Source: Prochloraceae cyanobacterium (GTDB lineage: Bacteria > Cyanobacteriota > Cyanobacteriia > Cyanobacteriales > JASJDA01). Taken from it: a stretch of DNA of 45,792 nucleotides. The stretch lies in the NCBI GenBank assembly GCA_030065755.1, contig JASJDA010000056.1:1-45792 (forward strand). The letters are read 5' to 3'. A program made the translations under genes and the position numbers. Below are positions 9,794 to 40,174 of this stretch, one piece after another. The stretch's first letter is position 1; each line of letters starts with the position of its first letter. The notes below the pieces were generated by a model. It searched no databases, was not told the DNA's origin, and saw nothing but the letters and a program-made list of their open reading frames with translations.

Positions 9794-9975
9794 TCACCAA
9801 TGATCAGGGTCTTCAATATACTCTTTGATTTTGGCAGTGCTGATTTTTCCAGTCGTCTCATAAAAATAAGATTTAGTCCACAAAGAAGGTAATTTAAGTA
9901 ACTCTGGAAACTCTTGTCTTAAAAATCTTGAAGACCTACCCTTAAACGCTCTAGCTACTTCAGCAATTGAAACTG
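9794..9975 (-). pseudogene. tnpA: tnpA (IS200/IS605 Y1 transposase) 3' fragment
   Basis: The minus strand reads in frame to the stop at 9794-9796, with the segments SIAEVARAFKGRSSRFLRQ, SLWTKSYFY and KIKEYIEDPDHW. These match the C-terminal third of Y1 transposases. The tyrosine in KEYIED sits where the family's catalytic tyrosine lies, but the upstream HUH metal-binding half is missing, so the product would be inactive. The fragment abuts the tnpB fragment head to head. Confidence 0.75.
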
Positions 9976-10295
9976 AAGAAAGTTATACTTCTGCTGCTTC
10001 AAGTTTAGACAATGATGAGATTCCAGTATATGGTGAAAAACCCGAAAAATGGAAAGCATCAGGTAAACGAGTAAAGCGCGGATTATACCGTTCGGTTAAA
10101 GGTATCGAATTTAATGCCGATGTTAATGGCTCGATTAATATCGCACGAAAAGTAGCGAGGCAAAACGAGTTTTGTTTTGATGCGCGTAGTCTTGCTAGAG
10201 GCGTTTTGACAATGCCTAGGCGGTTAAGATTGTGGAACAAGAAAGGAACTGTTCCTAATTTTAGCAGTGCTGAAAAAGAATCTGCGTCGCTTTAG
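9964..10295 (+). pseudogene. tnpB: tnpB 3' fragment (RuvC-III end)
   Basis: The plus strand reads IETEESYTSAAS, GEKPEKWKASGKRVKRGLYR and NADVNGSINIARKVA to a stop at 10293-10295. This is the C-terminal end of a TnpB-type RNA-guided nuclease, including the RuvC-III region around NADVNGS. It is the subgroup that carries EESYTSKAS-type sequence in place of the usual CxxC zinc finger start. The RuvC-I and RuvC-II parts are gone. Its stop codon lies inside the right-end hairpin. It is from a different subgroup than the intact tnpB at 35.5 kb. Confidence 0.75.
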
Positions 10296-10310
10296 CGCGC
10301 AGAGTGTCAA

Positions 10311-35543: not shown

Positions 35544-36737
35544 ATGACTGAACGTGCCTATAAGTACCGCTTTTACCCAACTCCCTCTCAAGAGAATCTC
35601 TTGCGGCGGACAATAGGCTGTGTTCGTTTGGTTTACAACAAAGCTTTGGCAACTAGAACCGAAGCATGGTACTCCAAGAAAGAGAGAGTTGGTTACAAAG
35701 AAACCTCTAGTTTTTTGACTGCGTGGAAAAAGACTACTGAACTCGACTTTCTTAACGAGGTTAGCTGTGTTCCTTTGCAGCAATGTCTCAGGCACCTTCA
35801 AAAAGCTTTTGCTAACTTCTGGGGAAAACGCGCTAAATATCCTCGGTTTAAAAAAAAGCGCTCGGGGGGCTCGGCTGAATTTACCAAGTCTGCTTTTAAG
35901 TGGAAAGATGGTAAATTGTGGCTTGCTAAGTGTAAGGAGCCACTTAATATAGTTTGGTCTAGATATTTGCCTGATGGTTGTGCCCCATCTACAGTAACAG
36001 TCAAGTTTGACCCATCGGGAAGATGGTATATTTCTTTGCTGATAAATGACCACACATGTGAGAAATTGCCACCAACCGAAAAAAAAGTTGGCATTGATGT
36101 AGGTATCTCTCGATTGATTAGTACCAGCGTCGGGGAAAAAATAGCTAATCCTAAGCATTTTAATCGGCTGTATCAAAAGCTTAAAAGAGCGCAAAAGGTA
36201 TTGAGTCGGAAAACCAAAAACTCGAATAACCGACATAAAGCGCGGCTTGAGGTAGCTAAGATACATGCTCAAATTAAAGATGCTCGTACCGATTTCTTGC
36301 ACAAGCTTACAACCAAAATGGTTAGAGAAAATAGCTTGATTGCTATTGAAGACTTGGGAATTAGAAACATGGTTAAAAACCGCAAGCTTGCTCGGTCTAT
36401 ATCCGATGCAGCTTGGGGCGAAATGTTTCGTCAACTTGAGTATAAGTGTGAGTGGTACGGGCGAGAATTGGTTAAAATCGACCGATTCTATCCCAGCAGT
36501 AAAAGATGTAACCATTGTGGTTTTGTGGTTGAGGAATTGCCTCTCGATGTTCGCCAGTGGGACTGTCCTAGCTGTGGAACGAAAGGCATAGACCGCGACA
36601 TCAATGCTGGGAAAAATATCTTGGCGGCAGGGCTTGCCGTTTCTGTCTGTGGAGCGGACATAAGACCTGATAACCATAGTGTTAAAGGGCGGTTGCGAAA
36701 AACTCGTACATCGAGAAGGAAACAGAAACCCAAATAG
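35544..36737 (+). CDS. tnpB: TnpB RNA-guided endonuclease, IS1341 type, intact
   Basis: TnpB is an RNA-guided DNA nuclease, ancestor of Cas12, that helps IS200/IS605 elements persist. This 397-residue copy has the full RuvC triad: Asp185 (GIDVG), Glu269 (IAIEDLG) and Asp352 (DRDINAG). It also has the zinc finger Cys322/Cys325 (CNHCG) and Cys341/Cys344 (CPSCG). Length and motifs indicate an active enzyme. The guide RNA normally covers the 3' end of the gene and the right end, here roughly 36600-36795. With no tnpA, transposition would need a transposase in trans. It belongs to a different subgroup than the relic at 10 kb. Confidence 0.92.
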   Translation: MTERAYKYRFYPTPSQENLLRRTIGCVRLVYNKALATRTEAWYSKKERVGYKETSSFLTAWKKTTELDFLNEVSCVPLQQCLRHLQKAFANFWGKRAKYPRFKKKRSGGSAEFTKSAFKWKDGKLWLAKCKEPLNIVWSRYLPDGCAPSTVTVKFDPSGRWYISLLINDHTCEKLPPTEKKVGIDVGISRLISTSVGEKIANPKHFNRLYQKLKRAQKVLSRKTKNSNNRHKARLEVAKIHAQIKDARTDFLHKLTTKMVRENSLIAIEDLGIRNMVKNRKLARSISDAAWGEMFRQLEYKCEWYGRELVKIDRFYPSSKRCNHCGFVVEELPLDVRQWDCPSCGTKGIDRDINAGKNILAAGLAVSVCGADIRPDNHSVKGRLRKTRTSRRKQKPK

Positions 36738-36748
36738 CGATGTTTGGG

Positions 36749-36794
36749 AATCCCCCGCTATAGCGCGCTAGCGTTTAGCGGGGGAGGATGTCAA
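36749..36794 (+). other. Right end of the tnpB element, candidate 3' end of its omega RNA
   Basis: A 10-bp stem (36751-36760, 36776-36785) encloses the small palindrome TAGCGCGCTA and is followed by GGATGTCAA. In this family the guide RNA scaffold ends at the right end and the guide follows from flanking DNA, which would put the guide just after 36794. This is inferred from the family. Confidence 0.4.
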
Positions 36795-36867
36795 AAATAG
36801 CAAGGCTTTCAAGACTTATGGATAAAGCACGGGTTTTGAAAATAGAGTCAACCATGAAGTTGAGAAG

Positions 36868-39514: not shown

Positions 39515-39659
39515 TTTTTGTTCTCCTTCGATGGGCGATCGCTATATTCTTTTTTTTATCTCTGTTTCGCGAGAAGACCCTCAGTTTTACTGACAGGACG
39601 GCACTTAAAGCGTGGAATTTAGTTTAGCGCAAATTGTTGCCTCATGAATCGCGACTAGA

Positions 39660-40010
39660 TGAGTGCAAAATACTGTACAATGTTAAAAGTTTGAATCCTC
39701 TGGGTGGGAGTCCCGAAAGGGCGGTAGTGAATGGATCGAAGAAGCTGAACCCTAGAACCCGAAAGCTTGCATAAGAAGCAAAAAAGTTGGGTAACGAAAA
39801 CCACGTAAAACATAGTGCAGTAACCGAATTCTAAAACTGGTATCAGAAGAACAGATTACAAATAAATAGGGCTGGTTCAGCCCGAATTAACGCCTGTGGA
39901 CATGATACCGCCGACGGTCATGGTAAAAGCAGTAATGCAAAGAAGCAGGAAGTAAACACTAAAGTAGACAACTTTGGATAAGTTTTACAGAACAGCCTAG
40001 ATAACAAGTG
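39660..40010 (+). ncRNA. Candidate HEARO / IscB-type omega RNA without an adjacent iscB
   Basis: No open frame fits this stretch, yet it is dense in stems. CCC-GAAA-GGG is at 39712-39721. GGGCTG/CAGCCC with a 3-nt loop is at 39869-39883. CATG..ACCG-CCGA-CGGTCATG is at 39901-39922. The order of GAGTCCCGAAAGGG, then a CCTGTGGACATGATACCGCC-type segment, then AAAGAAGCAGG resembles, as I remember it, the HEARO RNA that guides IscB nucleases. The element ends at 40121 in the hairpin plus GTCAA right end used by IS605-type elements. HEARO RNA normally precedes an iscB gene; here none follows. An alternative is a degraded group II intron, but I find no GTGYG start or domain V. The boundaries are approximate. 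Confidence 0.5.
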
Positions 40011-40090
40011 ATATTCTAGTATTCTCGGTTCAGACATAATCGCGTAAGACTTGGAGTAGGGCAACCAAAACAAGCTGTGATTAGCTCAAG

Positions 40091-40122
40091 AATCCCCCGT
40101 CTCTGGCGGTGGGAGCGTCAAC
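40091..40122 (+). other. IS605-type right end of the HEARO-like element
   Basis: AATCCCCCG is followed by a short hairpin (TCCC and CCG pairing with CGG and GGGA) and GCGTCAAC. This closely matches the right end of the tnpB element (AATCCCCCG ... GGGGGAGGATGTCAA). It marks the stretch from about 39655 as a mobile element. Confidence 0.5.
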
Positions 40123-40174
40123 AGAGGATTAAAGCTGAGGAGCGATAATTTTTAGCTTTTTTGCGAGAACTGAG

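What the first reader, a model, noticed from the sequence alone, without database searches (positions are those of the whole stretch)
39655..40125. Orphan HEARO-like (IscB omega RNA) element between acnB and vapBC
A gene-free, strongly structured 350-nt stretch with several clean stems (39712-39721, 39869-39883, 39901-39922) reads like a HEARO RNA in the order of its conserved blocks. It ends in an IS605-type hairpin plus GTCAA right end. No iscB gene follows, so this would be a non-autonomous RNA-only mobile element able to use an IscB and a Y1 transposase in trans. The stems and right end are seen; the RNA family is recalled from memory.
Basis: partly seen in the sequence, partly recalled or inferred. 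Interest (0 to 1): 0.72.

Follow-up and report, generated by a model that had tools for sequence, protein, structure and literature searches.

The report
Relic of a guide-RNA-only mobile element
The stretch is the broken remains of a small cyanobacterial jumping element that carries no gene, only a structured RNA built like the guide RNA of the DNA-cutting enzyme TnpB (not IscB), and it belongs to a widespread family of protein-free elements that RNA databases do not yet list.

Summary
Window 39560-40121 is a tnpB-less IS200/IS605-type element, not a HEARO. Rfam finds no HEARO here, although the same genome holds 14 HEAROs above the family cut-off. The 5' part (39684-39829) and 3' part (39996-40121) match complete 346-445 bp elements without protein genes in many cyanobacteria. 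Those start after TTAC/TTAT and end in a right-end hairpin plus GTCAA. One genome holds seven near-identical copies at unrelated sites; joining the flanks of one restores an open frame. The RNA is real: its 3' domain covaries strongly (75 double changes against 20.7 in shuffles, 0/500), and Rfam lacks it. Its core (GGGYAGGGCATACCC hairpin, CUUGG:YCAAG stem, right-end hairpin) equals the omegaRNA overlapping the 3' ends of tnpB genes in the same genome. The window copy is damaged: a 166-nt IS607-type tnpB end (39830-39995) replaces its middle. Use of TnpB and TnpA in trans is inferred.

The parts
39556..39559 (+). TTAT, target / putative transposon-adjacent motif
   Evidence: Intact relatives all start directly after TTAC or TTAT; type-B relatives L081, L108 and L111 read TTAT or TTAC then CTA..CGGCAAGA..GCCCTC; read off the sequence here.
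39560..40121 (+). whole element, 562 bp, left end to right end
   Evidence: Left boundary by analogy with type-B relatives; right boundary GTCAA (model R1 39969-40121, 106.2 bits, E = 9.6e-28).
39579..39597 (+). left-end imperfect hairpin (CCTCAGttttaCTGACAGG)
   Evidence: Same block GAAGACCCTC..hairpin in relatives L075, L081.
39684..39829 (+). 5' domain of the RNA
   Evidence: 79-83% identical over 39719-39827 to complete elements L023-L025; conserved blocks in the 17-sequence alignment.
39710..39722 (+). subtype hairpin GTCCC-GAAA-GGGC
   Evidence: Present in L075-L077, L082, L090 with loop changes, absent in the other subtype.
39830..39995 (+). foreign fragment: last ~55 codons plus right end of an IS607-type tnpB, replacing the middle of the RNA
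   Evidence: Copies at 82-90% identity elsewhere in the genome; tblastn E = 2.4e-12 to the tnpB product; a full copy has a MerR-type serine recombinase fragment upstream.
39996..40121 (+). 3' domain: TnpB-type omegaRNA scaffold with CTAGA..TCTAG hairpin, TAATCG:TGATTA stem and right end
   Evidence: R1 106.2 bits, E = 9.6e-28; covariation of the family. The 5' strands of helices 1 and 2 (CUUGG, UGAACC) are lost in this copy.
40093..40114 (+). right-end hairpin TCCCCCGtctctgGCGGTGGGA, followed by GCGTCAA
   Evidence: 94% identical over 33 nt to the right end of the tnpB element at C435 (L016).
40122..40141 (+). flank that would be the guide if the RNA were intact
   Evidence: Inference from TnpB biology: the guide lies directly 3' of the right end.

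Best explanation
The feature is a decayed copy of a protein-free IS200/IS605-type element of cyanobacteria. Its only cargo is a structured RNA descended from, and folded like, the omegaRNA (reRNA) of TnpB. An intact copy would work as follows. The Y1 transposase TnpA of another IS605 element recognises the left and right hairpin ends and moves the element to a site after TTAC/TTAT. The transcript reads through the scaffold into flanking DNA, so the first bases after GTCAA become a guide. A resident TnpB binds the scaffold in trans and cuts the empty copy of the same site (TTAY + guide), which brings the element back by repair. Shown here: element ends, mobility, RNA structure, homology to tnpB-linked omegaRNA, and presence of TnpA and TnpB genes in the genome. 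Inferred: transcription, TnpB loading in trans, guided cutting. The window copy is probably dead, because an IS607-type tnpB end inserted and the middle, including one strand of two core helices, was lost.
For: No HEARO although the genome has real ones. Complete homologues without protein genes in many cyanobacterial genera. Covarying helices: 97.8% of cells paired against 27.9-48.2% when slid, 75 double changes against 20.7, 0/500 shuffles; further covarying helices in the full-length RNA. The model of the 3' domain also rings at 3' ends of genuine tnpB genes (L147, L148, L149, L193, L211; Pfam OrfB_IS605 and Cas12f1-like_TNB on L148, L149, L193 and L159), and separate alignments of tnpB-linked and RNA-only ends give the same fold. 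Mobility: seven near-identical copies in G020 with unrelated flanks, all after TTAT; joined flanks of one restore a 267-aa frame. G020's RNA-only right end differs by two bases from that of a tnpB element in the same genome. Eleven complete Y1_Tnp genes in the own genome.
Against: No expression data and no proof that any TnpB binds this RNA. The match between the 3' model and tnpB ends rests on the outer stem, the AACGCUUGGGGAG block and the right-end hairpin; the interior differs. Folding energy alone is not significant. The 5' ~200 nt of the large RNA have no recognised counterpart in tnpB elements, so this part may do something else.
Confidence: 0.83

Rival explanations
1. HEARO: an IscB omegaRNA without its iscB gene.
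For: IS605-type right end; the genome is rich in HEARO and IscB-like genes.
Against: No HEARO match at E up to 10; relatives L023-L025 give none either. HEARO lies 5' of iscB and starts with GUCA, whereas this RNA ends in GTCAA and matches tnpB 3' ends.
Confidence: 0.02
2. A passive, MITE-like deletion derivative of an IS605 tnpB element, moved by TnpA in trans, whose RNA has no function.
For: Element ends and mobility explain the copy number without any RNA function. The window copy is broken. The thiC-linked copies evolve about as fast as thiC third codon positions.
Against: Compensatory changes in a helix seen in the large tnpB-less elements and not in the tnpB-linked ends (helix 2: UGAACC:GGUUCA, CUAUCC:GGAUAG, UAGUCC:GGACUA, CCAUCC:GGAUGG) point to selection on the RNA after the gene was gone.
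Confidence: 0.2
3. The RNA has left the TnpB pathway and acts on something else (regulatory RNA or decoy for TnpB).
For: Large 5' domain conserved across genera with no recognised counterpart in tnpB elements; three small genomes without intact TnpB keep a copy in the leader of thiC.
Against: The right end and GTCAA stay intact in most copies, so the guide junction is kept. The thiC copies show no excess conservation.
Confidence: 0.12
4. Group II or group I intron piece, or another known RNA family.
For: GAAA loops and intron-like blocks noted by eye.
Against: No intron-family match at E up to 10 in the window, nor at E up to 1 in three intact relatives. The element interrupts genes as a plain TTAT-targeted insertion.
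Confidence: 0.03

Closest known systems
TnpB omegaRNA / reRNA of IS200/IS605 elements (e.g. ISDra2; PMC8612924, PMC10097598)
   Same: RNA ends at the transposon right end, with the flank as potential guide; same core hairpin, stem and right-end hairpin as tnpB-linked loci of the same genome.
   Different: No tnpB gene; enlarged RNA with an added three-way region and a ~200-nt 5' domain; strong own covariation.
PATEs, palindrome-associated IS605-type elements without genes (PMC7290912, PMC3119063 use the term)
   Same: Non-autonomous, IS605-type ends, no protein gene.
   Different: These carry a conserved, covarying RNA shared across many genera, not just two ends. Whether tnpB-less omegaRNA elements were described elsewhere (I recall work on Geobacillus) could not be checked: that paper is not held.
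HEARO, Rfam RF02033 (IscB omegaRNA)
   Same: Guide-RNA-like RNA in an IS605-superfamily element; also occurs without a gene (own knowledge).
   Different: Different sequence, structure, orientation and partner; tested and not met.
IS607 TnpB reRNA (RAGATH-18, PMC11061315; cyanobacterial IS607 TnpBs, PMC10711439)
   Same: The foreign fragment 39830-39995 is the end of an IS607-type tnpB.
   Different: RAGATH-18 scores only 18.1 bits here (cut-off 44.9) and does not ring in intact copies; not claimed.

Membership tests
HEARO (RF02033) | Match to the covariance model | tested here: not met
   None at gathering or at E = 10, none in intact relatives; positive control 14 over-threshold hits in the genome.
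HEARO (RF02033) | iscB gene directly downstream in autonomous relatives | tested here: not met
   No iscB in inspected relatives; elements are only 346-445 bp.
IsrB omegaRNA | Similar RNA upstream of isrB genes | tested here: not met
   Upstream regions of the four RRXRR genes without HEARO (L129-L132) read by eye and found unrelated.
IS200/IS605 element | Insertion after a short motif, no target duplication, hairpin ends, right end in TCAA | tested here: met
   TTAC/TTAT before LE, GTCAA at RE, joined flanks restore a 267-aa frame, for relatives; read off the sequence for the window copy.
IS200/IS605 element | Y1 transposase TnpA available | tested here: met
   Eleven complete Y1_Tnp genes in the genome, none in the element.
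TnpB omegaRNA | Shared scaffold with the 3' end of tnpB loci | tested here: met
   R1 rings at 3' ends of tnpB genes, E = 1e-8 to 6e-5 in a 23-kb search, 4.2e-5 to 7.8e-4 genome-wide for L147-L149; same consensus fold.
TnpB omegaRNA | Intact scaffold in the window copy | tested here: not met
   5' strands of helices 1 and 2 replaced by the tnpB fragment.
TnpB omegaRNA | Bound and processed by TnpB, guides cleavage | not testable with these tools
   Needs RNA-protein experiments.
Group II intron | Match to Rfam intron models | tested here: not met

The most novel reading that the evidence does not exclude
Cyanobacteria carry a family of RNA-only parasites: elements with no protein gene whose enlarged TnpB-type guide RNA borrows both the TnpA transposase and the TnpB nuclease of resident IS605 elements. 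Selection has kept and rebuilt the RNA long after tnpB was lost.
Probability: 0.45. Interest if true: 0.75.

Novelty: new variant of a known kind. Interest (0 to 1): 0.5.

Why it matters
TnpB is usually thought to act in cis, making its guide RNA from its own message. A large family of tnpB-less elements with a covarying, enlarged omegaRNA would show that the guide RNA alone can be a selectable mobile unit, a two-level parasitism. It would also give a set of natural scaffold variants for TnpB engineering, and fill a gap in Rfam: intergenic stretches in Microcystis, Crocosphaera, Roseofilum and others could be annotated. The window copy itself is a relic; the family is the interest.

Tried and rejected
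HEARO and all Rfam families. IsrB omegaRNA. Group I/II introns (no intron match). Folding-energy evidence: not significant. RAGATH-18 hit at 39893-39951: 18.1 bits, E = 1.9, in the right kind of gene, but intact copies of that gene do not match, so treated as chance. Domestication of the copy in the thiC leader of three small genomes: RNA identity 83.6-84.1% is no higher than thiC third positions (84.1-86.5%), so no sign of extra constraint. Empty site of the window copy: the only same-genus genome has acnB, but I saw no alignable flank upstream of it. Plasmid collection: no match.

Full report
WHAT IS THERE. The stretch 39655-40125 has no gene and lies between the start of acnB and a PIN/AbrB-type pair. 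Rfam finds nothing at its thresholds in the window. At E up to 10 it finds only an 18.1-bit RAGATH-18 match, cut-off 44.9. Folding energy is not unusual: z = -0.81.

TWO LAYERS. A search of the window's own genome showed two kinds of repeat. Positions 39830-39995 have a dozen copies at 66-90% identity. They are the end of a tnpB gene: the frame ...ACGHDTADGHGKSSNAKKQEVNTKVDNFG-stop is shared with tnpB copies. One full copy has a fragment with a MerR-type helix-turn-helix and a serine recombinase upstream, that is, IS607 type (read by eye from the translation). Positions 40032-40124 resemble right ends of tnpB elements. The first 190 bases have no copy in this genome.

COMPLETE RELATIVES. The first 200 bases hit other cyanobacteria. 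Those hits (L023-L025) continue in the same order with the window's last 125 bases, while the tnpB piece is absent. So the window copy is an element with a foreign tnpB end in its middle. Most of the middle of its RNA is lost between GTAACCGA and CCTAGATAACAAGTG. A search of 391 genomes gave more than 30 genomes with long matches. An exact pattern scan of 84,980 species hit only cyanobacteria, among them Microcystis, Crocosphaera, Roseofilum, Microseira and Chlorogloea. One viral contig also has it. None of the inspected copies of the large family holds a tnpB or iscB frame.

IT IS A MOBILE ELEMENT. Left ends start directly after TTAC or TTAT and right ends finish in GTCAA. Genome G020 has seven near-identical copies of a 346-bp subtype (two carry a short internal insertion) at unrelated sites, each after TTAT. 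For one copy, joining the flanks restores an open frame of 267 codons across the site. These are the marks of IS200/IS605 transposition. By analogy the window copy runs from 39560, after TTAT 39556-39559, to 40121.

THE RNA IS REAL. In 22 diverse 3' domains, 97.8% of cells pair, with 75 double changes against 20.7 in shuffles (0/500). Sliding the partners drops pairing to 27.9-48.2%. The best helix switches between UGAACC:GGUUCA, CUAUCC:GGAUAG, UAGUCC:GGACUA and CCAUCC:GGAUGG. More covarying helices occur upstream in the full-length RNA.

WHICH RNA. HEARO is excluded, with a working positive control: 14 over-threshold HEAROs in the genome. The four IsrB-like genes have unrelated sequence upstream. 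The covariance model of the 3' domain also rings at 3' ends of real tnpB genes in the same genome and others, confirmed by Pfam for four of them. Aligned on their own, tnpB-linked ends fold into the GTAGGGCATAC-type hairpin, the CUUGG:CCAAG stem with inner stem, and the right-end hairpin. Short RNA-only elements fold the same way, and the long family keeps the outer parts but replaces the inside. One locus (L210) still shows a decayed tnpB reading next to this RNA (E = 0.003), which suggests how such elements arise. The own genome has eight further RNA-only copies of a related subtype, three of which share an identical 3' domain.

HOW IT LIKELY WORKS. Shown: ends, target, mobility, RNA structure, homology to TnpB omegaRNA, TnpA genes in the genome. 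Inferred: the transcript runs past GTCAA so that the flank becomes the guide, TnpB binds in trans, and cutting of the empty site favours retention. In G020 the RNA-only right end and that of a tnpB element (L254) differ by two bases, which fits shared enzymes. In the window the RNA is broken, since one strand of two core helices is gone, so this copy is probably inert.

LIMITS. Expression and TnpB binding cannot be tested here. The homology to tnpB-linked omegaRNA rests on the outer elements; the inside has diverged. Whether tnpB-less omegaRNA elements were described before could not be settled, because the most relevant paper I recall is not held; the titles and abstracts listed by the full-text searches showed none in cyanobacteria.

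Noticed in passing
L176, L178, L182 (genomes G148, G269, G184): A single copy of the RNA-only element sits at the same place, just upstream of thiC (TPP riboswitch confirmed by Rfam in L176), in three small genomes without intact TnpB; the GTCAA end is mutated in two. Its identity is no higher than thiC third codon positions, so it looks like a vertically inherited fossil.
   Followed up: yes
window 9809-9976 (-) and 10200-10310 (+): Remnant of a Y1 transposase gene next to a TnpB-type right end (GAATCTGCGTC..GAGTGTCAA): another decayed IS605-type element in the window.
   Followed up: partly
window 35544-36737 (+): Full-length tnpB (397 aa; OrfB_IS605, Cas12f1-like_TNB and HTH domains) just downstream of acnB, with its own hairpin right end at about 36748-36795.
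   Followed up: partly
L129-L132 (own genome C440, C409, C84, C334): Four RRXRR genes of about 390-410 aa without HEARO hits: likely IsrB with a distinct upstream RNA not recognised by the HEARO model.
   Followed up: no
L282 (viral contig IMGVR_UViG_3300017678_000010, 1111-1142): The conserved block of the RNA-only element also occurs on a contig classed as viral.
   Followed up: no
L096, L101, L102, L104, L105: Another short subtype (IS605-type left end plus about 180 nt of the 5' domain) that shares the 5' part at 73-78% identity; only one of the five (L102) showed a right-end match.
   Followed up: partly
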